Shown here piece after piece: positions 4,965-28,288 of a stretch of 64,000 bases of DNA. Under the pieces are notes generated by a model that was given only the letters and a program-made list of their open reading frames with translations, ran no database searches and had not been told where the DNA came from. Where the stretch lies: the NCBI GenBank assembly GCA_039619475.1, contig CM077116.1, forward strand, positions 151,979,088-152,043,087, written 5' to 3'. The stretch's first letter is position 1, and each line of letters starts with the position of its first letter. The position numbers and the translations under genes are program-made. Source of the DNA: Icerya purchasi (Eukaryota; Arthropoda; Insecta; Hemiptera; Monophlebidae).

Positions 4965-5099
4965 ACAATAAGATAGTATAATTATTGTTGAATGAAATTT
5001 TATCTATACCTGACGATTTATTCGACTGTAAATGTCAAATTTATAAATGTTCCGGCCATATATTAAGTTTATCATTTTCATTAAACAGATATTTCTCGT

Positions 5100-6330: not shown

Positions 6331-6934
6331 TTATTTCTTTGTTTCGTTATACTGTTAAAATTCAGGAAATAACTAGGCAGTTATCCTTGTTTCTCACATC
6401 GCAGTGTCATAAATGATTAAACCAATAGGTGATTTTCGCTGTACAACTGTCCTAACTTAAACCTTGTTGACATTATTTGTCTTCAGCTCCAAGAAGATCC
6501 CGGCAACAGTTGCTGCTTTGGAACAGAGAGAGTAGCATTGAAGATCAAGACTCTGGAACGCCGCAGTTGGTTTTTTGAAGGAAAACTTCCATCGCCGTCT
6601 ATAAAAAGGTAGCCTGACCTAGTTGCTACCCAGTCTGAGAAAGCTTTTCTCGATTTGAACTCAATACTAGCCCCTCTTAGACTACCCATACGTCTTTTGG
6701 TTTACATACTTGGTTTCTTTTTGGGATTTTCTCCTCAAACTTTAGTGGAAATGAAGAGGTTGTGAAATTCGCTGGTGAATATTTCCCTTTCGGATCACAC
6801 TTCCTGATATTAATTACAACGTAATTCTTAGGCTACCTCCTATTAGAAAAAATGTCCCAATTTTATGTAACGTTTGTTATATTTTATAGAATTTTTGTAA
6901 TTGTTATTTTACAAATGTCATAAGTTCATGTAAC

Positions 6935-7022
6935 GAAATATGTGACGAAAATGTAATGAAAAATGTAACGAAAATGTAATGAAAAATGTAACGAAAATGT
7001 AATGAAAAATGTAACGAAAAAA
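6935..7022. repeat. 22-bp tandem repeat
   Basis: About three to four copies of a unit containing AAATGTAACGAAAATGTAATG lie head to tail, with almost no divergence between units. It is a simple minisatellite in non-coding DNA. Confidence 0.85.
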
Positions 7023-7825
7023 CGTCTTAATTTTATATAATGAAAGTTAAATGTTGGAATAGGATTTTTGTGATTATGTTATTTTTTTTTTTGTGTTGAT
7101 GTCAGTAAGAATTACGTTGTAAATTTTGATCATTTTATACAAAGTATAGAAGAGAAAGAGACAGAAATGAAAGTAGAGGAGTCAAGGGGCACAGCCCGTT
7201 GCGAGGCCAAAATGGCAGAGTTTTATGTATATATACATATACACAAATAGAGACGAGGAAAGAATAAAATTTTACTGTAGGTTTCATTTGTGGAAATGGT
7301 TCAACTTCTTCATTTCAAGTTATCATAGGTAAAATCATGGCCGAATTTCGAATAAAAACCGTGTAATCAACTTCAATTACACTAATATTTTTAAAACACA
7401 AATTCTGATTTCTCGTTGTTTGTAGCTAATTTTTCTCTACGAAAAAATACTTCAATTAAGGCACATCCGTTTGTGTTGAATCACATTTAGAATATATGCT
7501 AACGTAATTTGCAACTATTTTCGAAGATTTTCATTCTGGTGTAATTGAAAAAATACAGAAATTATAAATTTGGCAATCTGTTTAACTTACAAGAATTAGA
7601 AAAATATCTAATTCGAAAAAAGACGGAGGACATTTCTTTTTTATCTATATCTAATGTAAACATTGAGAAATATGATAGATGGTTACTACTAGAGTAAGTT
7701 TTTAGAATAGGTAAAGGTATCATTCGCTAAAAGACAAATGTGGTATCGAAATAAATAAATGTATTAATTATCATTATTATTATTTCTATTTCTAAGGAGA
7801 CTATTTTTTTTAACGTTATTCGATG

Positions 7826-8575
7826 ATTACTAAAGTCACCAAACTTATTGCAATTTATACTGCGCCACCACTAACAGGTACACTTTTGAATAAGTAAAGA
7901 ATCGTTCGAACTAATTCGCACGGTTAAAAGTTATGCGCAGTAATGTTAAGACGGCATATTTCCGTCAGTGATTAAATGCCGTTAGGGATGTTTCGTGATT
8001 GAATCTACATTTCCATGCTAATTAATGTTGATAATATTTTAGTTATGATAAAGGAGGATGGAAAATATTAAGGGAGGCTTACATGAATATAGTGATGTAA
8101 TACGAGTTACTCGCGTTCATTGCTTTTTTAGTTTCAAAATTTTGGTCCTTTCCTTAAATTTTAAAATTTTGGGCGTTCCTTTTTTCTTGTATTTTAGTGA
8201 TGAAAAAGCGTTGATCACAAAAACAAAACAAATCAACTCATTAGCTATTGCTATAGACTTTTTTTTAAATTTGCTAGTTAATTTTTGTTTGGCTATTTTG
8301 TTTTCTTCACAGTCTATAAAATTTCCACGGTAAATAACAATGATAATATTTCAACTTAATCGCGTTTATTATATTAGTATTAAAATATTCTCTAAAGGGA
8401 ATCTCAATTTATTAACGTATATTTTTAATGGCTACTTAATTGTTATTTATCGATACTCATCCGCAGTTACATGGGGGGCCACCATCATTGGTCGATTTAC
8501 TTTTGCATAAATAAAGAATCATTAAAATCGGTCTGCATAATCAAAAGTTACGGGTGAACAAATTTTTAAAAAAAT
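7826..8575. repeat. Pair of diverged direct repeats about 630 bp apart
   Basis: Two segments, about 7830-7945 and 8465-8570, share the order GCCACCA, ACTTTTG-ATAA, TAAAGAATC, a TCG-rich stretch and CAAAAGTTA-type blocks. They look like two old copies of the same short repeat, or the two ends of one element in direct orientation. The DNA between them has no recognised coding sequence. The 91-codon frame at 8058-8333 has no family features and is probably chance. Confidence 0.45.
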
Positions 8576-8937
8576 ACGCGATTAACATGTGACCTTCGAT
8601 AAAAAAAATTAAAACATATATTCGTATTGTAATAATAAAATGTGTTCTAATCGCTCTTCTCACGCCGTAATGTACACGAAGGTGAGAAACGTTTGAGGTG
8701 ACTGTTCAGTTTATTTTACTGGTAATCTTATTGTTATGATGGGATTTCATGAGGTTATCAATCTGATTTTAAATTCCAAGAGAGATATTTCTAATAATTT
8801 AGCTTTGTTTTATTTTTGCATATAGCGGCGCTTCAATAAGTTATTGCTACATTAGATTTATTTCTTCGAACTTTAGTAGTATTCCATAAAGGTAAATATA
8901 CCTTTAACATTAAGTCTACTTAATTTAATACAAAGTT

Positions 8938-10125
8938 GTTTTTTTTATGGGTACGCCAACGAAGAGCAACAGCCCAATCAGCCAAGGAATCTAAGTAATA
9001 GTTCAAAAGGAGAATAACATATTAGATTTCAATCTGGTGCGAGATTGAATGAATGAAAGAAGCTAGAATAGGAACAACTGACAAGGAAGGAAATAAGAGA
9101 ACATAAGAGTCATTGTATGGAGTAGGAAGACGAAGATCCAAAAGCCGAGAATAAAAGAGAGAACGTTCTGAAGAGAGTGAGGAACATTCGAAGAAGACGC
9201 GATTGATATCACACAGAAAAAAGGAGTCCTCTGGGTGAAGAAGGCACCGCGGAGAAGAGACGAGGGAAAAACGATAAAGTGACGAAGGGAGAAAGGTATG
9301 ACCGAAACGAAGACGACATATAGCGGTGATCAGGGGACGACAAAGGGAAGGAAACATGTCGAACCATCTGGTCAAAGAAGGTAAGGGCTGAACGGAAAGA
9401 TAAAAGGAATTCGGATTTGAGAAAAGAGAAAAATAAATATCCTTCCATAATCTAAGGTGAAACTGTTTGGAAATATGATTAATATTGTGAGCGGAAAATT
9501 TATGAAGAGGATGTCCATTGGATGCTCCCGAGTGAGCCAAGGAATCAGCCACCTCATTACTCTCAATTCCAGCATGGCTAGGAATCCACAATAAATCAAT
9601 TTGGATCGAACGGAACAGGAATAATTCGTGAATTAGATTGCGAATAAGGAGAATGAAAGGATCGAAAGAGGGCAACGGTAAGGGAGAAGAGACCGCGTGC
9701 AAGACACTTTCAGAGTCAGCTATTAAAAGAAATTTATCCGAGAGGATAGAAGAGGAAGAGATAAAAAGAATTGCATGAAGTATGGCAGCAGATTCAGCAG
9801 TAAATATAGAGCAGCAGGAAGGAAGTTTAAAGGATTCGGAGTAGTTGTGAGAAGGAAAAACAAAGGCGGCACCAACCTCATCAGCCCTCTTAGACCCATC
9901 AGTAAAAATAACGGAATGATTGGGATATAAAGAGCTTAAAACCATGTGAAATTCAGATCTAACTATAGATTGAGGAAGGAATTCAGCGGAACTTGACAAA
10001 TGAAATACGTGAGGAGGATGTAAGAGACTAAAATAATTCAGAGAAAAGTACGGAGATTTATCATAGGAGAAAATATAGGGAGAAAAATTGGCAAGACGAA
10101 CAGAAATGAAAGATAAATAGATTTC
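8938..10125 (-). pseudogene. I-like LINE 3' part with complete RNase H domain
   Basis: A long minus-strand frame (about 9022-10125) begins in the RT/RNase H linker (RLANFSPYIF) and contains all RNase H landmarks in order: FTDGSK, FTAESAA, IADSESV, and WIPSHAGIESNEVAD. It then has the family C-terminal region with CDINRVFFECSSL and ends HQIEI-stop. No internal stop interrupts these ~365 codons. The RT and endonuclease are missing, so it is 5' truncated. A short 3' UTR with GGCGTACCCAT leads to a poly(A) tail at 8939-8947. The intact RNase H suggests a fairly young insertion. Confidence 0.88.
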
Positions 10126-10860: not shown

Positions 10861-11796
10861 ATCGATTACCTACTAAAGAAGAAGTTGACGTAATTATTAA
10901 ACAACTTAAAAATAAAGTGTTAGCAGGACTTGATGGAATATCAAATGGATTTATTAAAATATTTCATAATTTGTTGCCAGATGTAATACCGAAAGTTATT
11001 AAACCGTATTGTTTAAATATAGTTATTAACCTCAAGAATGGAAATTACGTAAAACGGTTATAATATCTAAAATGAATAAAAGTTCAAACTTGCTTACCTC
11101 ATACAGAGCTATATCGTTATTATCTAATTTTAGTAAAATATATGAAAAATGTATTCTTCATAAATTAAAAGAATTTGTAGCAAAAACGGAATAGTACATG
11201 ATAACCAATATGGCGCATTACCCTAGGTAGATCATCTGAATTAGCTATACACAATATTTTACAAACAATAAAAATGTACAAAACAAAAAAATTACCGTAC
11301 ATACTTATTTACTCTTGATATAACAAAGGCTTTCGACAGTTTAGATTTACAATAGATTACTTGTATTATTAAAGGAACTAGGATTACATAATGGAACATT
11401 GTAAATTTCGAAAATCGCTTCACTGCATTAAAAATCGGTAATTATTCGAGAAAACAAGAAACCGTTATGGGAGTACCGCAAGGGTCTGTTTTAGAACCGT
11501 ACTTGTGGAACATAGTTTTCTCTCAAATGTGTGATTACCAACTAATGTAAACATTTTCACTTTCGTAGATGATATTGCAATAGTATAACAGCCGATAAGA
11601 ATGAAAATGTATTGGAAAATAAAGTTTACCAGGTTTATACGGAAATCGCGAAAAGGTTAGAACAATTTAATTCTAAATATTAACGAATAATCGAAGTCAA
11701 CTTACATGTTGTTTAACAAAAACTTAAGGGATAAAAAATTAAATTTGCTCCAATACGGATTAAATATTTGTATGGTTAGTCAAAACAAATACTTAG
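10861..11796 (+). pseudogene. Jockey-like reverse transcriptase, 5' portion (interrupted)
   Basis: Reading with several frameshifts, the plus strand shows the RT blocks in order. These are AGLDGIS near 10930, a RKTVIISKMNKSS block near 11050, SYRAISLLSNFSKIYEK near 11110, LDITKAFDSLDL near 11320, GVPQGSVLEP near 11480, and FVDDIAIV near 11565, which holds the catalytic YxDD-equivalent. The last is followed by the KSxLMLFNK-like region. The sequence stops at AAATACTTAG, exactly where the palindromic element begins, and resumes at 27785 with the next residues of the RT thumb. Frameshifts and stops show it was not an active copy, or has decayed since. Confidence 0.85.
11791..11796. repeat. 6-bp target-site duplication, left
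   Basis: ACTTAG lies directly before the first base of the palindromic element and is repeated exactly at 27785-27790. Removing the element plus one copy restores an uninterrupted RT motif (KYLGILID), which confirms it as the insertion site. Confidence 0.93.
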
Positions 11797-11949
11797 AGTA
11801 GATAGAAAACGTTACTTCTAGGAGAAGAGCCAATCAGGAGCGAGTATTTCGTTACGTGACCATGCCCCCTTTTACTCAACTAATCAATAGTCAATACTCA
11901 ATCAAATGACACACCGTTTTTACATCAAACCATCCAGTAAGAGTTCAAC

Positions 11950-14880
11950 GAAAATGCTTCTCTCATAGCGCTACATACAAATGCTAACGCTGTCAATCAG
12001 TTGACCAATGCATGTCTTTACTTGTACGTAAATTATCGTTATTCGGTAGCGACTGGTTTTGGGGGATTACGCACACAATGATGTATATATGGTTACGAGC
12101 GTCCGTATACATATGTAAAATTAGTTATTACCATTATTGATTTTTGTTGTTATCAATGTTATCAGTGGTCAGTCTGCAGGAATCGTGGTAAAATACAGGT
12201 TTTCGCCGCTCCGGTATTTCTAGGAATCGCGAAGATTTTCGTTCGGTCAGTTGGCTAAAACTTTTCTTTGTCCGATACATTATGTAGGGGGGGTAAGTCT
12301 ATCTCACACATCGCAAAAGCGAAAATGCTTCTCTCATAGCGCTATACGTAAATGCTAACGCAACCGTTGAAACCGGATTTTAACGTTCTTATAATTTCTA
12401 TTCCAGTCTATGCCTTATTACGGAACCATACCCTACATGTACACACTAACACAAACATACACTCATACTCAAAGTCCATGACTACTTTATTCAATGCGCA
12501 TATGTAACTAACTATTCCTGACGGAATGACATTTTTCTGATGCAACATTTCCACTGCCACAACCGATTCAAAGGTAGTAAAAGTGCACGCATCGTTCTCG
12601 CACACGTGTCGATCGTTCGCGATATCGTGATTTTTTTAAATTAACCAAAATATAATATTTAAAGCATGAAACTAACCTGAGCTCCCCGTTCACCCACTCT
12701 GTACCATTCAAATGTATTTTTTAATTTTTTTATTTTTTTTCACGCCTAAGCATTATACAAATTAGTCTAAGTATATTTCTCATTTTCTACGGTTCCAAAA
12801 ATTTTTCTTCATTCTCCGATCGTTAGAAAAGCGCACTGACAGATCACACACTTATATCTATCATATATTATTTTTTCTCACTTACGATTATTTTTCCGTC
12901 TGTAAGTATTTATGTATGTTTCCCCCAGTTCTAAAAATAAATCCTTCGATGTCTCGCCCCTCAGCGAATGCACACCGTCCGATCCCGCACACATTCCGCT
13001 GTCAATAGTTTCTCTGTCGTTTATAATATTTTTTTTTCCCGTCCGTAAGTATTATAAAATTAGTCAAAATATATTTTTTCAATTTCTACGGTTCCAAAAA
13101 ATTTTCCTTATTCTCCGATCGTTACAAAAGCGCACTGACTAGTGATGGGCAACTTCGAAATGTTTCATTCGAATTATTCGATTGTTCCACAGTTGATTCG
13201 AAATGTTATTTCATTCGTATAATTCATTCGTATTCACAACAATCATTCGAAATGTTATTTCATTCGTATAATTCATTCGTATTCACAACAATCATTCGAA
13301 ATGTTATTTCATTCGTATAATTCATTCGTATTCACAACAATCATTCGAAATGTTATTTCATTCGTATAATTCATTCGTATTCACAACAATCATTCGAATC
13401 AAACTCATTCGAATCAAAATCATTCGAATCAAAATCATTCGAATCAAACTCATTCGAATTAAAATCATTCGAATCAAAATCATTCGATTGTTTCTTTTTT
13501 GACGATTGTTGATTGTTTCGTTTGTAAAAACATTTCGAAATCGCACATCACTAGCACTGACAGATCACACGCTTATATCTACCATAGCGTTAGCCACCGC
13601 GAAAGCGAATCATTCGATCCCGTGCACACTCTGCTCTCAATAGTTTCCCTATCGTTCATAATAATTTTTCCAAGCCTAAGTATTATAGAATTAGTCTAAG
13701 TATATTTATTATTTTTTCTCACTTACGATTACTTTTCCATCCGTAAGTATTTATGTATGTTTTCCCCGGTTCTAAAAATAAATCTATCGATGTCTCGCCC
13801 CTCAACGAAAGCACACGCATCATTCTCACGCACATGTCATTCGTTCGCGTTACCACTTTTTTTTTCAAAATTAGTTCAAGTATATTTTATTATTTTTCTC
13901 ATTACGATTATTTTCAATCCGTAAGTATTTCTGTATGTTTTCCGAGGTTTTAAAAATTAATCCGAACAAACACCCAAACTGTTGTGAAAGCATACTATCT
14001 ATCCCCCGCACAGATTCTACATTATACGTTACTCTATTACGAGTTCTTCAAAAATTGATTTGAATATGTTTTTCATTTTTTTTTTTTTCAATCCTAAAAA
14101 TTCATTCTTTCTACCCCCGCCCCCCTCACATCTAAAATTACCGATTTTTCGTAATCTTTATTTATTTTATCGATTCTAAAATTTAATCAGTGGTTCACTC
14201 GAAAGCGTACCGTACATTCCCACACACATATCTTCTATCACGAATTTCCCTATTGATCATGAACATTTTTCAACATTAGCCACAATAGCATATCACATTG
14301 GTCTCGCATACGCACCACATGCAGTTCTATATGTTTAATTTTTTATTAACGATCTTTATTTATTTTTTGTACCGGTATTACTTTTTCCTACACAACCATG
14401 TCATCATATACACTTAACATTGTCAAAATAATTTTAACCTTTCGAGAAAGAAAAATCTCCGATCAATAAAAAGTGTTTATCAACATCACAATTATTTCCA
14501 ATATTAATCGTTTCGCTACAAACATAATTTTTTTTATTTAATAAACTCATCCACATCATCAATCGTTTCAAGACATTATTGTTTCAAACATCAATCCCTC
14601 TTTTCCAAGAATTGATAACCTCTGCAGGTATATATCTCGTCGCCGCAACAACATTTACCTGCATGACTTGCATACCTTCAAGACCACTTGTACATTGCTC
14701 GCACGCTATTTACCATTATTCGGTCACAGAATATTTTTCACACTCCCACACATATGCGCATACACTCAAAGTCCTCGATTACTTTGTTCGTATACAAATA
14801 TATCAGCTTTCTCTGACGGAACAACATTTTTCTGATGTAACATTTCCACTACCACAACCGATTCAAAGGTAGCTAATGAG
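11950..14880 (+). repeat. Subterminal degenerate repeat zone, left arm
   Basis: Several families recur as direct repeats. A ~42-bp block with GCTTCTCTCATAGCGCTA and AATGCTAACGC occurs at 11950-11991 and 12321-12361. A ~140-bp block containing TTTTTCTGATG and ACAACCGATTCAAAGGTAG occurs at 12450-12592 and 14745-14872. A third family contains CTACGGTTCCAAAAA, CTCCGATCGTTA, GCGCACTGACAGATCACAC, GTAAGTATTTATGTATG and GATGTCTCGCCCCTCA, and occurs at about 12740-12990, 13037-13139, 13562-13830 and 13900-13960. Short frames in this zone look like chance. The arrangement recalls the repeat-rich ends of linear viral or plasmid genomes, but that is inference. Confidence 0.75.
13140..13553. mobile_element. 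hAT-type MITE A, left arm (414 bp)
   Basis: It begins TAGTGATGGGCAACTTCGAA and ends with TTCGAAATCGCACATCACTA, an imperfect terminal inverted repeat. It is flanked by a perfect 8-bp duplication GCACTGAC (13132-13139 and 13554-13561), the size made by hAT transposases. There is no coding capacity. The interior is a minisatellite of CATTCGTATAATTCATTCGT and CATTCGAATCAAA units, which explains the repetitive IRMILIRM-type translations. Confidence 0.92.
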
Positions 14881-15117
14881 ATAGACTATCGAACGGAATC
14901 ATTCAAGCAGTCAGTATTAGTTTTGTGTTAAACATATGTATTTTCTCGAATCTGTGTTCACGCATTATTAAAAAATTTACGTCAACGTTAAAGAAAATAA
15001 TTTCCTACGTTTTTTTTCTATCATTTTTTTTCTGTCTTTTATCTTTTCTTTTTCTCTTTCTTTTTCTCTGTCTTTTTTTTTTTTGAGTGAAAAATTTGAA
15101 ATACATATTATTCAATC
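14579..15117 (+). other. Pre-gene segment with polypyrimidine tract, left arm
   Basis: A 97-codon frame here starts only at a TTG and overlaps the direct repeat at 14745-14872, so it is unlikely to be a gene. From 15010 to 15085 the plus strand is almost pure T and C, and then an ATG lies at 15118. The tract could influence structure or promoter activity of the following gene. The sequence itself proves nothing more. Confidence 0.35.
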
Positions 15118-16138
15118 ATGAACGCTAATATAGTTAACGTAAGCAGCAACTCAAAAATTAATTAAGGACGCCGAATTTATTCAGGATTTATTTGCAAGTG
15201 ATAGCGACTCGCATACGTCTTCGTCACTTCAATTACTGCAATCAGATGATGGTTATTCTTCAACAGAATCAACATCTTTTGCACATAAAATCGTTGGTCC
15301 AGTATTATTGTCAGATCAGATGGATATAGTGGAATATTTTGTAGATTTCAGCTTCCATAAGGATTCTGATTATGGTTTTCTAGTAACCGAACTAGCGATG
15401 ATTGATATGTCTGACGGGAGGTGTTTACATACGCTATACAAACCAAGCAGAGCATGGTCTGCATCAAAAATGCCTCATTTACAATGCTCTTCCGTGAGTC
15501 ATTACTTGAAAAACCCCTCATTATTTCCCTGTCGGGAAGAAATATTCATGGCACGTGATGTATTCACAATATTGTCTGAAAAACCGAAGGCTCGCGTATA
15601 TATTTTAACCACTTATGCAAAACTTATATTATGGGAACTTAACGAAAAGTCTGAATTGTTGCGTGACTTGGGCTACGAACTCGTTAATATGGAGAAAGTC
15701 TTTCGAGTACCTAGTATTGATGATTTATATCAAGAATACTCTGGTATAAGCAATCTGGTAACTTGTAAGCACCATTATGAGAATGATATTTTTCATTGTG
15801 CGATGAAAAATGTTATGGTGATGAAGACGTGGCACGATCATGTTATCCGTCCGCTGAAGCTTATGAACAATCTCAATATAAATGATTTAAGCCAGTTGTT
15901 CATTACAGCCACCAAAGAAATGACAATTACATTATTTCCAAGTTGCATCGGGGACATTTATATATTTTAACCGGACAGATTAAAACAGGATGATGCGATA
16001 AAATCATTTCTACCATGCTACGATCACGAACATGTTAAAGAATATTATATCGATGGTGATACATTACGCAGGAGTACTCGAAATTATGTCAAAGTAAAAG
16101 ATTGCGACAACTGTCAACACTCAATTCATACGGATTAA
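15118..16138 (+). pseudogene. Nuclease-like protein gene of the palindrome, left arm
   Basis: From the ATG at 15320 the frame runs 216 codons to a TAA at 15968-15970. It then continues in the same frame for 55 more codons to a second stop at 16136. Both parts align with the central paralogue, so the first TAA is a nonsense change or a readthrough site. Early residues VDFSF (Asp9) and VTELAM (Glu24), with a later C-x-HH...HCA segment, resemble the spacing of DEDD exonuclease folds. The second part has FLPC-x2-H and KDC-x2-C-x-H, a possible zinc site. I recall similar uncharacterised proteins in insect genomes but cannot name the family. Upstream, ATG 15118 could join by a 46-nt intron (donor 15139, acceptor 15184) to an open frame with an acidic serine-rich segment. 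Confidence 0.6.
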
Positions 16139-16139
16139 A

Positions 16140-18700
16140 AATACAATAAAAGACTCGGAATTTGAAAGCTGGAGTTGTCTAGATCCTACGAAAGTTGAAT
16201 ATGAACATAACAATTACCTTTCAATGTACCAAAGTCAACTGTCGCGTAGTATGTATAATATGTGAAATAAAACCATATTTTTTTCTTTTACTCGCATTTT
16301 TTATTTTTATTATTTCAAAATCTTTTACAGTGTTTCACATAAATTATAATGTATGTATGTATATATGTATGGAATTTTAATATGTAATAATATACATTTC
16401 ATACATTTTATTTTATTTCATGGTCATATAATTACTTTAAAATTATTTAGATACACCGCAGATATTATAGTACCGAACACATCATTTATTATTTCATTCT
16501 ATTTCAATTAATATGTTGTATGGATGAAATCAAATCAATTTATGTAACTGTTTATTTAAATTTAAATAATCTTTTTCATACAAGTATGAAAAAAATTATT
16601 TTTTTATTTTTTTCCTCGATATGAATGGTAAATCTACGACTTTATTTGAAAAATGGTCAAAACCTGATACACAGATTTCAAACTTTGATGGAAATTTCCG
16701 TAAAACGTTTAGTTTACACTTATTATTTTTAAAAAAAAAATTTTCATTATTATTATTCATATCGTTTAAATAGACTGATACAACAGAGAGAGAAAATTAA
16801 AAGCTAAATTTTTACACGTGAGGGAGGGAGCTGATGAAAACGTACGGGTCTTATTATTTGGAATACAGATTACGAAGGAAATTTTTATTCAATGTTTCAT
16901 TTTAAGATTTTTCATTTTTTACATTTAAAATTTTTCAATACGAAAATATTTCGAAATCTACAGGAACGTCTACGAATAGTCTTCGTCATTATAGAAGCAC
17001 TTGCAGATCATGTATCGACACTGCATGCGCGTAAGGGTGAGTAAATATGTGTGAATATGTGTGAACATGTGTGTGTATGTATGCTTGAAATGTGCGAAAT
17101 GGCTAATAAGAAACAACCGTTGAATCGCAACGACAGGTAGAGATCCGCTTATAGACTAAGAGAGTGAGAGTGAAATAAATTATGTACCTTTATTATTGCA
17201 GAACTGCACTGCAGTGACAGACATGAAATATCCGTTAGCATCCTTTTCGAAGCAGTTTTATAAAAAAGGCCGAAAATTAGCTTTAAAACTGGATGAATGA
17301 GATAGTTGATAATACGCATACCATTAAGACCGGTATACGTGTATGTGGGCATGTGTGTGAGCGCATGGTTAAATGAATGACAAAAGATTATTAACTGCAT
17401 AGGCATTGTTAAATACAACTATACTGATTTATCCGTAAAACTAACAAATTTTACCATTGTTTTCTTTCTTTTTTTTCTTTCGCGTTTTACAAAAAATTCA
17501 TGTTAGTTCTAAAAATATTGCTAAATTCAAATTAAATCGATCATGTTATTTTATTTTTTATTTTTGTTTCTTTAAACAATATGCTGTGGAAAATAAATCG
17601 TATTTATCTTACTCAATCTTTTACCTAATATTCTAACGGTTTTAGACAACAGCAGAAATATGCAAGTTACCATGGATGTATTATATTTTATTCGTGTATA
17701 TGTGTATACACGCTTTCTATACAAGCGCATGCAAATATCGGATACCAGAAATGTATGATAATATAATTTTTAAATCAATGATTAACGTATTATTAATTCT
17801 TTTTTTTTTTCACCCTATAATATACAAAATAACATCATACTTGCTTTTACAACAATATTTAACTTCTACAAAAAATAAATATCCCCAGGGTGGGGAGTAA
17901 AAATATCATGAAGAATCACTGTTTTTTGTTGTTTTTTTTTTTTTCTTCTTTGATTTACAATCTTCTTTTTCTTTACATTATTTTTTATTTCAGAGATTTT
18001 TTAAAATAGTTTTCTTTACACTCCAATATGGAATCTGTTAATTTATTGTACATGTCATATAATATGATAAATGCTAAAATTCGGAAAGTTTTTTTAAAGA
18101 AGTAATTGACAGAAGAGTATACTTTTGAAAACAAGAGAGTGAAGAGGCTATACATAAAAAGCAATATGATGCATTAAACATAACGAAAAAAAAAAAAAAA
18201 CAGAAGAAACGTAAACACAAAGACTATTATGTTTTTTTCATTAATCTATTCAATTACAACTTTTTTTTTTTTCATTCATCTATATTCTAAGTTCCATCAT
18301 TAGTTTTAATTTTTTATATGATGCCTACTAATTTCTATGTTTACTTAATTTATTTACTTTTCCACGAATGTTTTTTAGAATTAAATTTTGAAAAAATTAA
18401 ACATATTTTCGCACCTGTGTCAACTATCACATTAAATACATGTAGAAATTTTCATTTCAAACACCGCCGGAAAATAACGTGGGTTTTTTTTTTTTTGCTA
18501 TTTTTTAAAAATTTATTCAAACTCTCTCTAATTATAGCTATTTTTACACCATTTTTCTTAACTTTTACTCATTTTTATATTCTACATACAATGCTTGAGG
18601 TATTAGATGATGCAAATTCTAAATACACCATATTGCTATCATCTCTGTTTATTTTTTTTTTATTTGTTACTCGTTTTTTTATTATTTTCTTATGTACATG
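16140..18700. other. AT-rich inner part of left arm, no recognised gene
   Basis: It contains several 60-166-codon frames, all very rich in Phe, Ile, Leu and Tyr and without family features. The longest (18318-18818) runs into the MITE at 18710 and so cannot be an ancestral gene. Poly(A/T) runs, TTTATTT stretches and GTGTATATGTGTA-type simple repeats are frequent. Mirrored at 20949-23509. Confidence 0.5.
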
Positions 18701-18709
18701 TATTAGAAC

Positions 18710-19132
18710 TAGTGATGTGCGATTTCGAAATGTTTTTACAATCGAAACAACCGATAATCGTCAAAAAAAACAAAACAATCGAATGATTTTTGTGAATACG
18801 AATGAATTATTCGAATAAAAACCGGAACCATCCGAACACAAACGAATGAAGTATTCGTAAAACATCGCCTAGATTCTTTCGAGGGAAATAACATTTCGAA
18901 TGAATTATTCGAATAAAAACCGAAACTATCCGAACACAAACGAATGAAGTATTCACTAAACATTGACTAGATTCTTCTGAGAGAAATAGCATTTCGAATG
19001 ATTGTTGTCAATACGAATGAATTATTCGAATGAAATAACATTTCGAATGCAACCACGGAACAATCGAATGCATTCAAAGTCATCGAACAATCAAATAATT
19101 CGAATGAATCATTTCGAAGTTGCCCATCACTA
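18710..19132. mobile_element. hAT-type MITE B, left arm (423 bp)
   Basis: It has the same termini as MITE A but lies in the opposite orientation (TAGTGATGTGCGATTTCG first, TTGCCCATCACTA last). It is flanked by a perfect 8-bp duplication ATTAGAAC (18702-18709 and 19133-19140). The interior has diverged CATTCGAA-rich repeats. It is non-coding; translations across it are spurious. Confidence 0.92.
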
Positions 19133-19386
19133 ATTAGAACCCATATGATTTTACAATAAAAAAAGTGTTTATACTCATTATTGAAGCTGAATATAGATAA
19201 TATTTACATTTAAAGGAAAAAGAAAAAGTTATTTTTATTATTCCATTCGCACACGAAAAAAATTATGAAATGTAAAATATATATATAATTCATGTAATAT
19301 ATTTACAAACGATTAACAAGAATAAAAGAATATTAATTTAAAAAATAAATAAATATCACCAAAAATTTAAAGATGGAAAAATTACA

Positions 19387-19998
19387 AGATTATGATTCGT
19401 ACAATGCTAACAAATTGGCTCCTTTAATCGGGTTATGTTGGAATTCGAACAAACTTGCATGGTTGCATTGCAGACAATCTTTGATTAAGGTGGGATGTAC
19501 TGCACTGAGTGGAAAAGAATCTGGAATATCATAGCTATGATGTTTAAAACACGGTAAGAAACGTTTGATACGTCGATCATTCTTCAGTGCTACAGGTAAT
19601 TTATTGTAAAAATCGCAAATTTTTTGAGGGCATACATTAATTAATATCTCTGCAGTAATATTTTGCATCAAGTCGTACGTAGAATATTTTACTAATGATA
19701 ATATAGGTCTAACATTTACATCGTACCATTTCTTCATCACATATACATTCTGCAATGAACACCTATGTATGTTTTTATCCGTGTGTGCATCACATTTTAC
19801 AACTCTTGATATTCCTTTATATATATTATTTAATTTCCTTAAATTGGGTATACCGAATTCTTCTTCTAAATTAATAATCTTGAATCTAGAAAGTGATGTT
19901 TCAAATAGTTTTATCCATATAGTGGTAATTTTTTAATTTCCTTTAACGTAAATATTCAATGGTTCCAAATCTTCCAACACATTTTCTATATCACCGGC
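19387..19998 (-). pseudogene. Nuclease-like paralogue spanning the palindrome centre
   Basis: On the minus strand, from about 19995 down to 19390, a frame aligns with the C-terminal two thirds of the arm gene. Shared features are a VKGN...WIKLF segment, C-D-x-H...HRCSLQNV, VMKKWYD, FLPC-x2-H and KDC-x2-C-x-H. It ends ALYES-stop. One in-frame TAA follows VKGN. The 5' end is missing because the palindrome boundary at 19998/19999 cuts it. Its 5' half lies in the unique centre and its 3' part in the left arm. The paired Cys/His motifs in two diverged copies suggest past selection on a metal-binding C-terminus. Confidence 0.7.
19651..19998. other. Asymmetric centre of the palindrome
   Basis: These 348 bp have no mirror copy. 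The arms meet it at GAGATATTAATTAATG (right, from 19999) and its complement (left, to 19650). It lies wholly inside the paralogue gene. Such a one-sided spacer is what a fold-back or template-switch event leaves when a strand copies itself back from an internal point. Confidence 0.9.
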
Positions 19999-19999
19999 G

Positions 20000-20262
20000 A
20001 GATATTAATTAATGTATGCCCTCAAAAAATTTGCGATTTTTACAATAAATTACCTGTAGCACTGAAGAATGATCGACGTATCAAACGTTTCTTACCGTGT
20101 TTTAAACATCATAGCTATGATATTCCAGATTCTTTTCCACTCAGTGCAGTACATCCCACCTTAATCAAAGATTGTCTGCAATGCAACCATGCAAGTTTGT
20201 TCGAATTCCAACATAACCCGATTAAAGGAGCCAATTTGTTAGCATTGTACGAATCATAATCT
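20000..20262 (+). pseudogene. 3' part of nuclease-like paralogue, right arm
   Basis: Plus-strand copy of the last ~85 codons of the central paralogue, from NVCPQ through FLPC-x2-H and KDC-x2-C-x-H to ALYES-stop. Nothing upstream supplies its 5' part because the palindrome centre begins there in the opposite sense. It is a by-product of the arm duplication. Confidence 0.75.
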
Positions 20263-20516
20263 TGTAATTTTTCCATCTTTAAATTTTTGGTGATATTTAT
20301 TTATTTTTTAAATTAATATTCTTTTATTCTTGTTAATCGTTTGTAAATATATTACATGAATTATATATATATTTTACATTTCATAATTTTTTTCGTGTGC
20401 GAATGGAATAATAAAAATAACTTTTTCTTTTTCCTTTAAATGTAAATATTATCTATATTCAGCTTCAATAATGAGTATAAACACTTTTTTTATTGTAAAA
20501 TCATATGGGTTCTAAT

Positions 20517-20939
20517 TAGTGATGGGCAACTTCGAAATGATTCATTCGAATTATTTGATTGTTCGATGACTTTGAATGCATTCGATTGTTCCGTGGTTGC
20601 ATTCGAAATGTTATTTCATTCGAATAATTCATTCGTATTGACAACAATCATTCGAAATGCTATTTCTCTCAGAAGAATCTAGTCAATGTTTAGTGAATAC
20701 TTCATTCGTTTGTGTTCGGATAGTTTCGGTTTTTATTCGAATAATTCATTCGAAATGTTATTTCCCTCGAAAGAATCTAGGCGATGTTTTACGAATACTT
20801 CATTGGTTTGTGTTCGGATGGTTCCGGTTTTTATTCGAATAATTCATTCGTATTCACAAAAATCATTCGATTGTTTTGTTTTTTTTGACGATTATCGGTT
20901 GTTTCGATTGTAAAAACATTTCGAAATCGCACATCACTA
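20517..20939. mobile_element. hAT-type MITE B, right arm
   Basis: Mirror image of 18710-19132, with the same 8-bp duplication in complement (GTTCTAAT at 20509-20516 and 20940-20947). One base difference from the left copy is visible (a Ser/Trp change near 20805 in the chance frame). Confidence 0.9.
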
Positions 20940-20948
20940 GTTCTAATA

Positions 20949-23509
20949 CATGTACATAAGAAAATAATAAAAAAACGAGTAACAAATAAAAAAAAAATAA
21001 ACAGAGATGATAGCAATATGGTGTATTTAGAATTTGCATCATCTAATACCTCAAGCATTGTATGTAGAATATAAAAATGAGTAAAAGTTAAGAAAAATGG
21101 TGTAAAAATAGCTATAATTAGAGAGAGTTTGAATAAATTTTTAAAAAATAGCAAAAAAAAAAAAACCCACGTTATTTTCCGGCGGTGTTTGAAATGAAAA
21201 TTTCTACATGTATTTAATGTGATAGTTGACACAGGTGCGAAAATATGTTTAATTTTTTCAAAATTTAATTCTAAAAAACATTCGTGGAAAAGTAAATAAA
21301 TTAAGTAAACATAGAAATTAGTAGGCATCATATAAAAAATTAAAACTAATGATGGAACTTAGAATATAGATGAATGAAAAAAAAAAAAGTTGTAATTGAA
21401 TAGATTAATGAAAAAAACATAATAGTCTTTGTGTTTACGTTTCTTCTGTTTTTTTTTTTTTTTCGTTATGTTTAATGCATCATATTGCTTTTTATGTATA
21501 GCCTCTTCACTCTCTTGTTTTCAAAAGTATACTCTTCTGTCAATTACTTCTTTAAAAAAACTTTCCGAATTTTAGCATTTATCATATTATATGACATGTA
21601 CAATAAATTAACAGATTCCATATTGGAGTGTAAAGAAAACTATTTTAAAAAATCTCTGAAATAAAAAATAATGTAAAGAAAAAGAAGATTGTAAATCAAA
21701 GAAGAAAAAAAAAAAAACAACAAAAAACAGTGATTCTTCATGATATTTTTACTCCCCACCCTGGGGATATTTATTTTTTGTAGAAGTTAAATATTGTTGT
21801 AAAAGCAAGTATGATGTTATTTTGTATATTATAGGGTGAAAAAAAAAAAGAATTAATAATACGTTAATCATTGATTTAAAAATTATATTATCATACATTT
21901 CTGGTATCCGATATTTGCATGCGCTTGTATAGAAAGCGTGTATACACATATACACGAATAAAATATAATACATCCATGGTAACTTGCATATTTCTGCTGT
22001 TGTCTAAAACCGTTAGAATATTAGGTAAAAGATTGAGTAAGATAAATACGATTTATTTTCCACAGCATATTGTTTAAAGAAACAAAAATAAAAAATAAAA
22101 TAACATGATCGATTTAATTTGAATTTAGCAATATTTTTAGAACTAACATGAATTTTTTGTAAAACGCGAAAGAAAAAAAAGAAAGAAAACAATGGTAAAA
22201 TTTGTTAGTTTTACGGATAAATCAGTATAGTTGTATTTAACAATGCCTATGCAGTTAATAATCTTTTGTCATTCATTTAACCATGCGCTCACACACATGC
22301 CCACATACACGTATACCGGTCTTAATGGTATGCGTATTATCAACTATCTCATTCATCCAGTTTTAAAGCTAATTTTCGGCCTTTTTTATAAAACTGCTTC
22401 GAAAAGGATGCTAACGGATATTTCATGTCTGTCACTGCAGTGCAGTTCTGCAATAATAAAGGTACATAATTTATTTCACTCTCACTCTCTTAGTCTATAA
22501 GCGGATCTCTACCTGTCGTTGCGATTCAACGGTTGTTTCTTATTAGCCATTTCGCACATTTCAAGCATACATACACACACATGTTCACACATATTCACAC
22601 ATATTTACTCACCCTTACGCGCATGCAGTGTCGATACATGATCTGCAAGTGCTTCTATAATGACGAAGACTATTCGTAGACGTTCCTGTAGATTTCGAAA
22701 TATTTTCGTATTGAAAAATTTTAAATGTAAAAAATGAAAAATCTTAAAATGAAACATTGAATAAAAATTTCCTTCGTAATCTGTATTCCAAATAATAAGA
22801 CCCGTACGTTTTCATCAGCTCCCTCCCTCACGTGTAAAAATTTAGCTTTTAATTTTCTCTCTCTGTTGTATCAGTCTATTTAAACGATATGAATAATAAT
22901 AATGAAAATTTTTTTTTTAAAAATAATAAGTGTAAACTAAACGTTTTACGGAAATTTCCATCAAAGTTTGAAATCTGTGTATCAGGTTTTGACCATTTTT
23001 CAAATAAAGTCGTAGATTTACCATTCATATCGAGGAAAAAAATAAAAAAATAATTTTTTTCATACTTGTATGAAAAAGATTATTTAAATTTAAATAAACA
23101 GTTACATAAATTGATTTGATTTCATCCATACAACATATTAATTGAAATAGAATGAAATAATAAATGATGTGTTCGGTACTATAATATCTGCGGTGTATCT
23201 AAATAATTTTAAAGTAATTATATGACCATGAAATAAAATAAAATGTATGAAATGTATATTATTACATATTAAAATTCCATACATATATACATACATACAT
23301 TATAATTTATGTGAAACACTGTAAAAGATTTTGAAATAATAAAAATAAAAAATGCGAGTAAAAGAAAAAAATATGGTTTTATTTCACATATTATACATAC
23401 TACGCGACAGTTGACTTTGGTACATTGAAAGGTAATTGTTATGTTCATATTCAACTTTCGTAGGATCTAGACAACTCCAGCTTTCAAATTCCGAGTCTTT
23501 TATTGTATT
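20949..23509. other. AT-rich inner part of right arm, no recognised gene
   Basis: Mirror of 16140-18700, with the same low-complexity frames on the opposite strand. No domain is recognised. Confidence 0.5.
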
Positions 23510-23510
23510 T

Positions 23511-24531
23511 TTAATCCGTATGAATTGAGTGTTGACAGTTGTCGCAATCTTTTACTTTGACATAATTTCGAGTACTCCTGCGTAATGTATCACCATCGAT
23601 ATAATATTCTTTAACATGTTCGTGATCGTAGCATGGTAGAAATGATTTTATCGCATCATCCTGTTTTAATCTGTCCGGTTAAAATATATAAATGTCCCCG
23701 ATGCAACTTGGAAATAATGTAATTGTCATTTCTTTGGTGGCTGTAATGAACAACTGGCTTAAATCATTTATATTGAGATTGTTCATAAGCTTCAGCGGAC
23801 GGATAACATGATCGTGCCACGTCTTCATCACCATAACATTTTTCATCGCACAATGAAAAATATCATTCTCATAATGGTGCTTACAAGTTACCAGATTGCT
23901 TATACCAGAGTATTCTTGATATAAATCATCAATACTAGGTACTCGAAAGACTTTCTCCATATTAACGAGTTCGTAGCCCAAGTCACGCAACAATTCAGAC
24001 TTTTCGTTAAGTTCCCATAATATAAGTTTTGCATAAGTGGTTAAAATATATACGCGAGCCTTCGGTTTTTCAGACAATATTGTGAATACATCACGTGCCA
24101 TGAATATTTCTTCCCGACAGGGAAATAATGAGGGGTTTTTCAAGTAATGACTCACGGAAGAGCATTGTAAATGAGGCATTTTTGATGCAGACCATGCTCT
24201 GCTTGGTTTGTATAGCGTATGTAAACACCTCCCGCCAGACATATCAATCATCGCTAGTTCGGTTACTAGAAAACCATAATCAGAATCCTTATGGAAGCTG
24301 AAATCTACAAAATATTCCACTATATCCATCTGATCTGACAATAATACTGGACCAACGATTTTATGTGCAAAAGATGTTGATTCTGTTGAAGAATAACCAT
24401 CATCTGATTGCAGTAATTGAAGTGACGAAGACGTATGCGAGTCGCTATCACTTGCAAATAAATCCTGAATAAATTCGGCGTCCTTAATTAATTTTTGAGT
24501 TGCTGCTTACGTTAACTATATTAGCGTTCAT
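23511..24531 (-). pseudogene. Nuclease-like protein gene of the palindrome, right arm
   Basis: Mirror copy of the gene at 15118-16138. It has the same in-frame TAA after DIYIF (23679-23681 on the plus strand) and the same possible 46-nt intron near the start. It differs by one visible amino acid (Asp to Gly in the IDMSxGRC segment). That both copies share the nonsense codon means it predates the duplication or was spread by gene conversion. The ATG used for the main frame is at 24327-24329. Confidence 0.6.
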
Positions 24532-26095
24532 GATTGAATAATATGTATTTCAAATTTTTCACTCAAAAAAAAAAAAGACAGAGAAAAAGAAAGAGAAAAA
24601 GAAAAGATAAAAGACAGAAAAAAAATGATAGAAAAAAAACGTAGGAAATTATTTTCTTTAACGTTGACGTAAATTTTTTAATAATGCGTGAACACAGATT
24701 CGAGAAAATACATATGTTTAACACAAAACTAATACTGACTGCTTGAATGATTCCGTTCGATAGTCTATCTCATTAGCTACCTTTGAATCGGTTGTGGTAG
24801 TGGAAATGTTACATCAGAAAAATGTTGTTCCGTCAGAGAAAGCTGATATATTTGTATACGAACAAAGTAATCGAGGACTTTGAGTGTATGCGCATATGTG
24901 TGGGAGTGTGAAAAATATTCTGTGACCGAATAATGGTAAATAGCGTGCGAGCAATGTACAAGTGGTCTTGAAGGTATGCAAGTCATGCAGGTAAATGTTG
25001 TTGCGGCGACGAGATATATACCTGCAGAGGTTATCAATTCTTGGAAAAGAGGGATTGATGTTTGAAACAATAATGTCTTGAAACGATTGATGATGTGGAT
25101 GAGTTTATTAAATAAAAAAAATTATGTTTGTAGCGAAACGATTAATATTGGAAATAATTGTGATGTTGATAAACACTTTTTATTGATCGGAGATTTTTCT
25201 TTCTCGAAAGGTTAAAATTATTTTGACAATGTTAAGTGTATATGATGACATGGTTGTGTAGGAAAAAGTAATACCGGTACAAAAAATAAATAAAGATCGT
25301 TAATAAAAAATTAAACATATAGAACTGCATGTGGTGCGTATGCGAGACCAATGTGATATGCTATTGTGGCTAATGTTGAAAAATGTTCATGATCAATAGG
25401 GAAATTCGTGATAGAAGATATGTGTGTGGGAATGTACGGTACGCTTTCGAGTGAACCACTGATTAAATTTTAGAATCGATAAAATAAATAAAGATTACGA
25501 AAAATCGGTAATTTTAGATGTGAGGGGGGCGGGGGTAGAAAGAATGAATTTTTAGGATTGAAAAAAAAAAAAATGAAAAACATATTCAAATCAATTTTTG
25601 AAGAACTCGTAATAGAGTAACGTATAATGTAGAATCTGTGCGGGGGATAGATAGTATGCTTTCACAACAGTTTGGGTGTTTGTTCGGATTAATTTTTAAA
25701 ACCTCGGAAAACATACAGAAATACTTACGGATTGAAAATAATCGTAATGAGAAAAATAATAAAATATACTTGAACTAATTTTGAAAAAAAAAGTGGTAAC
25801 GCGAACGAATGACATGTGCGTGAGAATGATGCGTGTGCTTTCGTTGAGGGGCGAGACATCGATAGATTTATTTTTAGAACCGGGGAAAACATACATAAAT
25901 ACTTACGGATGGAAAAGTAATCGTAAGTGAGAAAAAATAATAAATATACTTAGACTAATTCTATAATACTTAGGCTTGGAAAAATTATTATGAACGATAG
26001 GGAAACTATTGAGAGCAGAGTGTGCACGGGATCGAATGATTCGCTTTCGCGGTGGCTAACGCTATGGTAGATATAAGCGTGTGATCTGTCAGTGC

Positions 26096-26441
26096 TAGTG
26101 ATGTGCGATTTCGAAATGTTTTTACAAACGAAACAATCAACAATCGTCAAAAAAGAAACAATCGAATGATTTTGATTCGAATGATTTTAATTCGAATGAT
26201 TTTGATTCGAATGATTTTAATTCGAATGAGTTTGATTCGAATGATTTTGATTCGAATGATTTTGATTCGAATGAGTTTGATTCGAATGATTGTTGTGAAT
26301 ACGAATGAATTATACGAATGAAATAACATTTCGAATGATTGTTGTGAATACGAATGAATTATACGAATGAAATAACATTTCGAATGCAACTGTGAACAAT
26401 CGAATAATTCGAATGAAACATTTCGAAGTTGCCCATCACTA
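26096..26441. mobile_element. hAT-type MITE A, right arm (346 bp)
   Basis: Mirror of 13140-13553, with the same 8-bp duplication in complement (GTCAGTGC at 26088-26095 and 26442-26449). It is 68 bp shorter because the internal minisatellite has a different number and mix of units: more GATTCGAATGATTTT-type units, fewer of the CATTCGTATAATTCATTCGT type. Confidence 0.92.
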
Positions 26442-27784
26442 GTCAGTGCGCTTTTGTAACGATCGGAGAATAAGGAAAATTTTTTGGAACCGTAGAAATT
26501 GAAAAAATATATTTTGACTAATTTTATAATACTTACGGACGGGAAAAAAAAATATTATAAACGACAGAGAAACTATTGACAGCGGAATGTGTGCGGGATC
26601 GGACGGTGTGCATTCGCTGAGGGGCGAGACATCGAAGGATTTATTTTTAGAACTGGGGGAAACATACATAAATACTTACAGACGGAAAAATAATCGTAAG
26701 TGAGAAAAAATAATATATGATAGATATAAGTGTGTGATCTGTCAGTGCGCTTTTCTAACGATCGGAGAATGAAGAAAAATTTTTGGAACCGTAGAAAATG
26801 AGAAATATACTTAGACTAATTTGTATAATGCTTAGGCGTGAAAAAAAATAAAAAAATTAAAAAATACATTTGAATGGTACAAAGTGGGTGAACGGAGAGC
26901 TCAGGTTAGTTTCATGCTTTAAATATTATACTTTGGTTAATTTAAAAAAATCACGATATCGCGAACGATCGACACGTGTGCGAGAACGATGCGTGCGCTT
27001 TTACTACCTTTGAATCGGTTGTGGCAGTGGAAATGTTGCATCAGAAAAATGTCATTCCGTCAGGAATAGTTAGTTACATATGCGCATTGAATAAAGTAGT
27101 CATGGACTTTGAGTATGAGTGTATGTTTGTGTTAGTGTGTACATGTAGGGTATGGTTCCGTAATAAGGCATAGACTGGAATAGAAATTATAAGAACGTTA
27201 AAATCCGGTTTCAACGGTTGCGTTAGCATTTACGTATAGCGCTATGAGAGAAGCATTTTCGCTTTTGCGATGTGTGAGATAGACTTACCCCCCCTACATA
27301 ATGTATCGGACAAAGAAAAGTTTTAGCCAACTGACCGAACGAAAATCTTCGCGATTCCTAGAAATACCGGAGCGGCGAAAACCTGTATTTTACCACGATT
27401 CCTGCAGACTGACCACTGATAACATTGATAACAACAAAAATCAATAATGGTAATAACTAATTTTACATATGTATACGGACGCTCGTAACCATATATACAT
27501 CATTGTGTGCGTAATCCTCCAAAACCAGTCGCTACCGAATAACGATAATTTACGTACAAGTAAAGACATGCATTGGTCAACTGATTGACAGCGTTAGCAT
27601 TTGTATGTAGCGCTATGAGAGAAGCATTTTCGTTGAACTCTTACTGGATGGTTTGATGTAAAAACGGTGTGTCATTTGATTGAGTATTGACTATTGATTA
27701 GTTGAGTAAAAGGGGGCATGGTCACGTAACAAAATACTCGCTCCTGATTGGCTCTTCTCCTAGAAGTAACGTTTTCTATCTACT

Positions 27785-27790
27785 ACTTAG
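27785..27790. repeat. 6-bp target-site duplication, right
   Basis: Second copy of ACTTAG, directly after the last base of the palindromic element. It continues as GTATATTAATAGAC, which restores the RT reading frame of the interrupted LINE. Confidence 0.93.
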
Positions 27791-27965
27791 GTATATTAAT
27801 AGACAATAACTTAAAATTTTATAATCATTTTCATCATATCACTAAAAAAATAAATACATTTTTAATTGTATTTAACAAATTATATGATAATAATAACCGA
27901 TTAAATTACAAGAAGGGAATAATAACATTATATAAAATCGTAATATTGCCGAACATACTTTATGG

Positions 27966-27971
27966 TAGTGT

Positions 27972-28027
<56 letters not shown>
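27966..28027. repeat. (TA)n microsatellite
   Basis: About 60 bp of alternating T and A with one C, expanded inside the RT pseudogene between GSVIY and the following KVKRFQ segment. Confidence 0.9.
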
Positions 28028-28028
<1 letters not shown>

Positions 28029-28288
28029 ACATTTTAAAAGTTAAAAGATTTCAAAATATATTAAAACGTTTTCAGAGAACTATTGTAATAAAAATGATTA
28101 AAGCTTGTAGAACTACCAGCTACATGGCACAAGCACTGTCATTGCAGGTATTAATCCATTAACTTACGTAATACAGAAACATATTAACATATTTTTAATA
28201 AAAAATAATATTAAAAATCATGAATTCCATAACGTACAGTATCATCGACCCTACTTCATACACGAACAAACCTCGTTAACGCTTAAAC

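What the first reader, a model, noticed from the sequence alone, without database searches (positions are those of the whole stretch)
11791..27790. A 16-kb near-perfect palindrome that moved as one unit
Seen directly: two ~7.8-kb inverted arms, AGTAGATAG...CTATCTACT ends and ACTTAG on both sides. A Jockey-like RT pseudogene is interrupted at 11796 and resumed at 27785 without loss of a base. The duplication shows that the whole palindrome, not just one arm, was integrated by a 6-bp-staggered integrase. Known families with 6-bp duplications (Maverick/Polinton, some retrovirus-type integrases) do not normally consist of two whole arms, and no integrase, polymerase or capsid gene is visible. The element may be a new class of giant foldback transposon, or a defective form of a linear virus-like element.
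Basis: partly seen in the sequence, partly recalled or inferred. Interest (0 to 1): 0.92.

Follow-up and report, generated by a model that had tools for sequence, protein, structure and literature searches.

The report
Palindromic snapback relatives of Polinton viruses
A 16-kb near-perfect DNA palindrome in what is very likely the cottony cushion scale insect is one of sixteen checked palindromic mobile copies with related ends, some carrying a Maverick/Polinton virus-like DNA polymerase gene in each mirror half, and the mirror shape likely arises when replicating viral DNA folds back and copies itself.

Summary
Confirmed: 11797-27784 is a 15,988-bp palindrome (arms 7,865 and 7,797 bp, spacer 326) flanked by ACTTAG; one reading frame continues across the joined flanks. 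It is not unique in the genome (very likely Icerya purchasi). All 16 elements checked with its terminal 14 bases are palindromes (four of them tested in mirrored windows only), and all 14 with both flanks read have 6-bp target duplications. Eleven belong to the window's sequence group, without recognised PolB; five, sharing only the outer 131-156 bp (86-92%), carry Polinton-type PolB frames. The window copy keeps part of a gene 61% identical to one beside the capsid gene of an ordinary Polinton here. A second Polinton family shows a likely origin: PolB-plus-capsid elements coexist with a PolB-half palindrome and an apparent capsid-half palindrome, both turning round near the middle at 5-8 bp microhomologies. 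Differences between copies are mostly present in both arms, so arms are made alike between moves. Best reading: fold-back (snapback) genomes of Polinton-type elements that became a propagating germline family and likely depend on other elements for integrase and capsid. Main rival: chromosomal gene conversion as homogeniser. No integrase was seen in the parts read; no reads were examined.

The parts
11791..11796 (.). left target-site duplication ACTTAG
   Evidence: read directly
11797..19661 (+). left arm, 7,865 bp, beginning AGTAGATAGAAAACGTTACT; its outer 131-156 bp are 86-92% identical to the ends of PolB-bearing palindromes
19662..19987 (.). 326-nt single-copy central spacer; it is the continuation of the arm in longer relatives (window 19600-19997 aligns contiguously inside both arms of L019/L020 and L021/L022), so the centre looks like an asymmetric deletion of a longer palindrome
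19988..27784 (-). right arm, 7,797 bp, ending CTATCTACT
27785..27790 (.). right target-site duplication ACTTAG
   Evidence: read directly
15143..15970 (+). ORF-A, left copy (275 aa; 331 aa in L019, L021, L027), diverged paralogue of ORF-B; no Pfam match
23679..24506 (-). ORF-A, right copy
19390..19932 (-). ORF-B, 180 codons of its 3' part, spanning arm and spacer; 61% identical over 164 aa to the ORF next to the capsid gene of a single-copy Polinton (L051:1-969)
13147..13487 (+). 49-bp and 15-bp tandem repeats in the left arm; site of the arm-to-arm length differences listed
26162..26427 (-). the matching tandem repeats in the right arm, with a different copy number
27791..28090 (+). right flank: the same frame resumes (interval marks a stretch read)

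Best explanation
The palindrome is a gene-poor member of a set of palindromic elements with related ends, some of which carry a Maverick/Polinton-type DNA polymerase gene in each arm, and it likely arose by fold-back (snapback) copying of part of such an element during protein-primed replication and was likely inserted by an integrase supplied by another element. Shown: the anatomy, the 6-bp duplications, palindromy in every element checked, PolB in relatives, and, in a second Polinton family of the same genome, a PolB-half palindrome and an apparent capsid-half palindrome. Proposed mechanism (inferred): PolB starts at a protein-capped end; where forks from the two ends meet near the middle, the growing strand jumps at a few matching bases onto its own displaced partner and copies back to the same end. 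The product has two identical replication ends and about the normal genome length, so it could replicate, be packaged and be integrated with proteins from ordinary elements. In later rounds each displaced strand could fold into one long hairpin, where mismatches between arms would be repaired or one arm copied; this would make the two arms alike before each new insertion. The window copy then likely lost about 3 kb at its centre unevenly, leaving the spacer.
For: Palindromy: all 10 further pairs fetched have mirrored arms (eight as one long match of 8.2-9.8 kb at 99.0-99.98%, two split by indels), 316.22 Mb was read in full, four others agree in mirrored windows; with the window 16 of 16. Six-bp duplications in 14 of 14 with both flanks read, plus both second-family palindromes. 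PolB in palindromes sharing the first 14 bases and, where compared, the outer 131-156 bp at 86-92%: L033 pieces, DNA_pol_B_2 2.3e-10, 44% identical over 496 columns to an open 1,248-aa PolB; 34 of the 40 scored copies of a PolB segment (of 711 candidates) form 17 inverted pairs, and five of the six such pairs in the listed part of C1 lie inside AGTAGATAG end pairs. Origin: among 16 end-paired AGTAGTGTCG elements five have one PolB hit converging on one capsid hit, one has two PolBs and no capsid hit (475.54 Mb), one has two capsid hits and no PolB hit (167.08 Mb) (both lists capped). Their turn-round points map to a 1.3-kb stretch where the modules converge, with about 5-bp (GATTT) and 8-bp (TTATTTGT) microhomology read by eye. 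Homogenised arms: over 25 element pairs, 1,236 differences in both arms, 195 in one arm of one element, 1 arm-specific state shared by two elements (pairs not independent). Length: 17 of 25 facing-in pairs are 17.4-20.1 kb; the five ordinary elements are 18.8-24.9 kb.
Against: No single-copy (non-palindromic) parent of the AGTAGATAG elements was found, so their own origin is argued from the second family. The window's group and the PolB-bearing group share only the outer 131-156 bp; the rest of the arms is unrelated by blastn, so helper and satellite is an inference. One of six PolB inverted pairs in the listed part of C1 (373.11 Mb) and five unpaired PolB copies do not fit neatly. 50 of the 100 listed AGTAGATAG places have no facing partner within 45 kb. 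No rve-type integrase was seen in the parts read of any element; the 150 rve matches scored of 1,249 candidates showed no evident link to PolB or capsid loci by eye. In one search the right arms of the 201 and 294 Mb elements are closer to each other (0 differences) than to their own partners (1 each), and their left arms tie. 575 Mb has about 3.6 kb inserted in one arm only. Chromosomal gene conversion could also make arms alike. The homogenisation test covers the window's group, not the PolB group. Only ends and centre of 167.08 Mb were read. Fork meeting, packaging and trans-integration are inference; no reads, expression or extrachromosomal DNA were examined.
Confidence: 0.7

Rival explanations
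1. Polinton-derived palindromes that formed once and then spread as ordinary two-armed DNA, with the arms kept alike afterwards by gene conversion on the chromosome, as in Y-chromosome palindromes.
For: Both-arm differences dominate, which conversion also predicts; some one-arm differences remain, as expected between conversion events.
Against: Arm-specific states are almost never shared between close siblings (0 in all 10 pairs of the 294/201/586/561/513 group); the 294/201 siblings show 7 one-arm and 0 both-arm differences, so conversion since insertion looks slow. A 3.6-kb one-arm insertion persists at 575 Mb. None of this excludes conversion.
Confidence: 0.18
2. An independent class of giant foldback DNA transposon with its own transposase, which merely picked up Polinton genes.
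For: The window copy alone shows no polymerase, capsid or integrase; ORF-A and ORF-B have no Pfam match above cut-off; its group shares only the outer 131-156 bp with the PolB-bearing palindromes.
Against: Palindromes with related ends carry PolB; ends beginning AGTAG and the 6-bp duplication are like Maverick ends; ORF-B is 61% identical to an ORF of a capsid-bearing Polinton; the same palindrome form occurs in a clear Polinton family.
Confidence: 0.07
3. Assembly artefact: fold-back (hairpin) reads joined so that one arm appears twice.
For: PacBio HiFi libraries can give fold-back reads (recalled), and 16-20 kb palindromes are about as long as HiFi reads (recalled).
Against: Two different flanks with a matching 6-bp duplication at all 14 fully read loci; arms carry private differences and unequal tandem repeats; different centres in different copies. 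The likely source assembly used HiFi at an average depth of 31 plus Hi-C.
Confidence: 0.03

Closest known systems
Maverick/Polinton elements (polintoviruses, adintoviruses)
   Same: 6-bp duplications; AGT-type ends; PolB in relatives with related ends; overall length near 17-20 kb; ORF-B shared with a DJR-capsid-bearing element of the same genome.
   Different: Vertebrate Mavericks have TIRs of 46-1,447 bp; here the inverted arms are about 7.8-10 kb and make up the whole element. No PolB, capsid, ATPase or integrase was recognised in the window copy.
AAV snapback subgenomes (5'-SBG with partial rep, 3'-SBG with cap region; PMC8235507, abstract and outline seen)
   Same: Reciprocal fold-back genomes of the replication half and the capsid half, described as a major category of defective interfering particles.
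   Different: Single-stranded virus with a genome of about 4.7 kb (listing); snapback genomes in particles. Here about 20-kb double-stranded elements fixed in a chromosome and present in many copies.
Adenovirus variants with inverted duplication of one genome end (recalled; no paper read; the listing showed none that I recognised)
   Same: Protein-primed linear genome with one end duplicated as a palindrome.
   Different: Seen in culture (recalled), not as an inherited mobile family.
Foldback (FB) transposons of Drosophila (features recalled)
   Same: Long inverted repeats with internal tandem repeats.
   Different: Target duplication length (9 bp, recalled) and no PolB/Polinton genes (recalled).

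Membership tests
Maverick/Polinton | 6-bp target-site duplication | tested here: met
   ACTTAG in the window; 14 of 14 elements with both flanks read, window included
Maverick/Polinton | (AGT)2 or (AG)3 end motif | tested here: inconclusive
   window group AGTAGA, one base from (AGT)2; second family AGTAGT (motif from PMC8097293 section 7)
Maverick/Polinton | TIRs of tens to about 1,450 bp around a unique interior | tested here: not met
   arms of 7.8 kb fill the element; range
Maverick/Polinton | protein-primed family B polymerase | tested here: not met
   not recognised in the window copy; present in five palindromes with related ends
Maverick/Polinton | double jelly-roll capsid, protease, ATPase | tested here: not met
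   none recognised in the window ORFs scanned; 0 of 65 chromosome-1 capsid hits lie in the 25 listed AGTAGATAG pairs (capped lists). Met in the second family (L051, L052)
Maverick/Polinton | retroviral-type integrase | tested here: inconclusive
   none found in the window ORFs scanned, in the right half of the 474.73-Mb element or in the PolB-half arm; the left half of a single-copy element was not fetched, and one search scored 150 of 1,249 candidates
Non-autonomous derivative of Polinton | shares ends with a PolB-bearing element and a gene with an ordinary Polinton | tested here: met
   outer 131-156 bp 86-92% identical to ends of three PolB-bearing palindromes compared by blastn (L033, L035, L047); ORF-B 61% identical, 2e-74
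Foldback (FB) transposon | long internally repetitive inverted repeats with 9-bp duplication (recalled) | tested here: not met
   6-bp duplications
Snapback/defective interfering genome | turn-round junction made by template switch in a parental genome | tested here: inconclusive
   two second-family palindromes mapped to the single-copy genome with 5-8 bp microhomology; not testable for the window group, whose parent was not found
Snapback/defective interfering genome | replicates or is packaged with a helper | not testable with these tools
   needs extrachromosomal or particle DNA

The most novel reading that the evidence does not exclude
A self-propagating germline lineage of snapback Polintons: palindromic half-genomes of virus-like elements, with two identical replication ends and arms regenerated at each cycle, that live as satellites of ordinary capsid-bearing Polintons in the same insect and keep near-normal genome length because they are packaged.
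Probability: 0.5. Interest if true: 0.88.

Novelty: new variant of a known kind. Interest (0 to 1): 0.82.

Why it matters
Mavericks encode capsid homologues but their particles have not been observed (PMC8097293, start of abstract in a listing), so whether Polintons replicate as extrachromosomal protein-primed genomes and make particles is open. Palindromic half-genomes with microhomology turn-rounds are the mark such replication would be expected to leave, and they make it testable: look for snapback DNA and capsids in this insect. It would also be a case of defective-interfering-type viral genomes becoming an abundant inherited mobile family, and a way to build very large near-perfect palindromes in chromosomes. 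In the held library I noticed no report: polinton+palindrom 44 papers, 30 listings seen; polinton+defective interfering 1; a five-term search 197, 15 seen; polinton+head-to-head 4. Only listings were looked at for this and subscription papers are mostly missing, so it is not proof of absence.

Tried and rejected
Protein searches with ORF-A and ORF-B found nothing at E<=0.001; IMG/VR scans with ORF-B and ORF-C found no relative; a PDB profile search of ORF-A/B gave only chance-level matches (E 0.93 and above), and the capsid ORF gave none at E<=1. AlphaFold on ORF-A (three window rows) gave mean pLDDT 32, not used. My by-eye idea that ORF-A/B are exonuclease-like and that ORF-C is a conserved Polinton protein rests on no call and is not claimed. 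A cut-and-paste foldback transposon was set aside on the PolB and ORF-B evidence.
Full report
Where it is. The window is G000:C2:151979088-152043087. G000 has 1,103,370,081 bases, with C1 of 601,656,059 and C2 of 497,304,701 bases. The published Icerya purchasi assembly has 1,103.38 Mb, scaffold N50 601.66 Mb and two chromosomes (PMC11183206, passages; lineage). I take the host to be this cottony cushion scale insect by that match. The word Maverick does not occur in that paper's main text.

The observation. Arms 11797-19661 and 19988-27784, spacer 19662-19987, duplication ACTTAG. Of 7,797 aligned sites 23 differ, 11 inside tandem repeats and four at the inner edge. Joined flanks leave one frame open across the junction.

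Other copies. The 404-bp end gave 40 full-length matches, the 40 scored of 1,067 candidates: 17 facing-in pairs 5.7-26.2 kb apart and six lone ends. The 14-mer AGTAGATAGAAAAC occurs 258 times against 23 for the reversed control; 100 places are listed, and these form 25 facing-in pairs and three other neighbours within 45 kb. I fetched ten of the pairs in separate halves. All ten are palindromes: eight match arm to arm in one block of 8.2-9.8 kb at 99.0-99.98%; the 575 and 222 Mb elements match in several blocks because of indels. At 561 Mb the centre itself is self-complementary (97% over 557 bases). 316.22 Mb was fetched in full and mirrors itself (8,730 bp at 98.9%); 245.95, 29.9, 444.4 and 450.4 Mb mirror at the ends and 5 kb in. 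With the window this is 16 of 16. Each of the 14 with both flanks read has a 6-bp duplication, all different in sequence. The right flanks of 586 and 561 Mb were not read.

Two groups share the ends. The window and the ten pairs form one group in two subfamilies about 10% apart; I recognised no PolB in the ORFs of this group that I scanned. The other five form a second group: their outer ends match the window's over 131-156 bp at 86-92% in the three compared by blastn, and the rest of the arm is unrelated. In 316.22 Mb the left arm has a PolB gene in four frame pieces and the right arm mirrors it; the 222-aa piece matches DNA_pol_B_2 at 2.3e-10 and the 487-aa piece is 44% identical over 496 columns to an open 1,248-aa PolB of another element. 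The mirrored windows of the four others hold frames matching the N-terminal part of that gene. Searching the genome with an 801-bp PolB piece, 40 of 711 candidates were scored: 34 form 17 inverted pairs, one more lies beside a pair, five have no partner among the 40. Of the six such pairs in the listed part of C1, five lie inside AGTAGATAG end pairs, one (373.11 Mb) does not. No capsid hit lies inside the 25 listed AGTAGATAG pairs (0 of 65 chromosome-1 hits; capped lists).

The link to Polintons. The window's ORF-B is 61% identical over 164 aa (2e-74) to an ORF of the 474.73-Mb element; ORF-A is a distant paralogue (21%, 6e-15). That element, 474726589-474745432, looks like an ordinary Polinton: ends AGTAGTGTCG; its right end matches the 475.54-Mb element's end in inverted orientation over only 431 bp at 98.6%; next to ORF-B are a double jelly-roll capsid gene (7e-77), an adenovirus-type protease (5.6e-4, just under the curated cut-off), a phospholipase A2-like gene (7.6e-13) and an A32-type ATPase (6.7e-9). 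I saw no rve integrase there or in the PolB arm of 475.54 Mb, but its own left half was not fetched.

The origin, seen in the second family. AGTAGTGTCGTTTTGCC occurs 35 times (control 1): 16 facing-in pairs and three lone ends. Combining with PolB hits (133 listed; 91 of 638 candidates scored) and capsid hits (126 scored of 560), five pairs (474.73, 31.13, 121.15, 271.34, 322.28 Mb) hold one PolB hit and one capsid hit, converging. One (475.54 Mb) holds two PolBs and no capsid hit: it is a palindrome, 8,601 bp of its arms matching at 99.7%, with duplication GGCGAG. One (167.08 Mb) holds two capsid hits placed symmetrically about its exact middle, no PolB hit, and duplication TATTAT; only its ends and centre were read, so it is an apparent palindrome. 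Nine pairs have neither hit and were not read. A segment of the F-box region found only the 475.54-Mb copy as an inverted pair among all 33 candidates, so the palindrome is the exception in that family. Against the single-copy element, the 475.54-Mb palindrome turns round at about 474736731-474736782; the 167.08-Mb one switches between 474736515-474736522 and 474737775-474737782, sharing TTATTTGT, and keeps ORF-B once in its loop; the first shares about GATTT (junctions read by eye). Both lie where the two gene modules converge. In vertebrate Mavericks the modules also point to the centre (PMC8097293 section 7).

Arms are made alike between moves. For 11 elements of the window's group I compared both arms in pieces (pieces covering under 90% were dropped, so sites per pair range from 3,163 to 9,055). 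Summed over 25 within-subfamily pairs: 1,236 differences carried by both arms, 195 by one arm of one element, 1 arm-specific state shared by two elements, 4 other. Pairs are not independent. If two-armed DNA were simply carried along, arm-specific states should be shared by siblings. In one 1.5-kb piece (six matches under 1,300 bp from both arms of 461 and one arm of 222 left out) 14 of 18 arms with a partner have it as nearest, two tie, and two (right arms of 201 and 294 Mb) are nearer to each other.

Length. 17 of 25 facing-in pairs are 17.4-20.1 kb, close to the ordinary elements (18.8-24.9 kb) although the content differs. This suggests, but does not show, a packaging limit.

Mechanism. 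Shown: palindromy, duplications, PolB in relatives, PolB-half and apparent capsid-half palindromes, junction microhomology, homogenised arms. Inferred: protein-primed replication, template switch where forks meet, hairpin stage, integrase and capsid in trans. The closest working analogue is AAV, where snapback genomes with rep sequences and with the capsid region are a major category of defective particles (PMC8235507, abstract and outline). That is a likeness of working, not membership.

Verdict. I file it as a new variant: a non-autonomous palindromic derivative of Polinton-type elements, not a Polinton proper, since the window copy fails the TIR, polymerase and capsid tests.

Noticed in passing
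G000:C1:427202338-427223292: Four PolB loci in the order + - + - with about 12.7-kb spacing, as if two PolB palindromes lay in tandem.
   Followed up: no
G000:C1:284.14, C1:540.61, C2:168.00 (PolB); C1:471.58, C2:115.86 (capsid): Further inverted pairs of PolB or capsid hits; possible independent palindromes.
   Followed up: partly
L029:7009-8417: Two small F-box proteins encoded beside PolB in the second family (F-box 1.8e-4 and 6.4e-6).
   Followed up: no
L051, L052, L029: No retroviral-type integrase found in the parts read of a capsid-bearing Polinton family whose palindromic copies have 6-bp duplications; the integrating enzyme is unknown.
   Followed up: partly
L025:2863-6484: About 3.6 kb inserted in one arm only of the 575.76-Mb palindrome, with ORFs of 241 and 161 aa without clear Pfam match.
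   Followed up: partly
window 52296-53766: Another inverted repeat: 547-bp arms, 98.9% identical, 377 bases apart.
   Followed up: no
G000:C2:151942227-151951851: Another pair of the same ends (9.6 kb apart), about 39 kb upstream of the window's element; interior not read.
   Followed up: no
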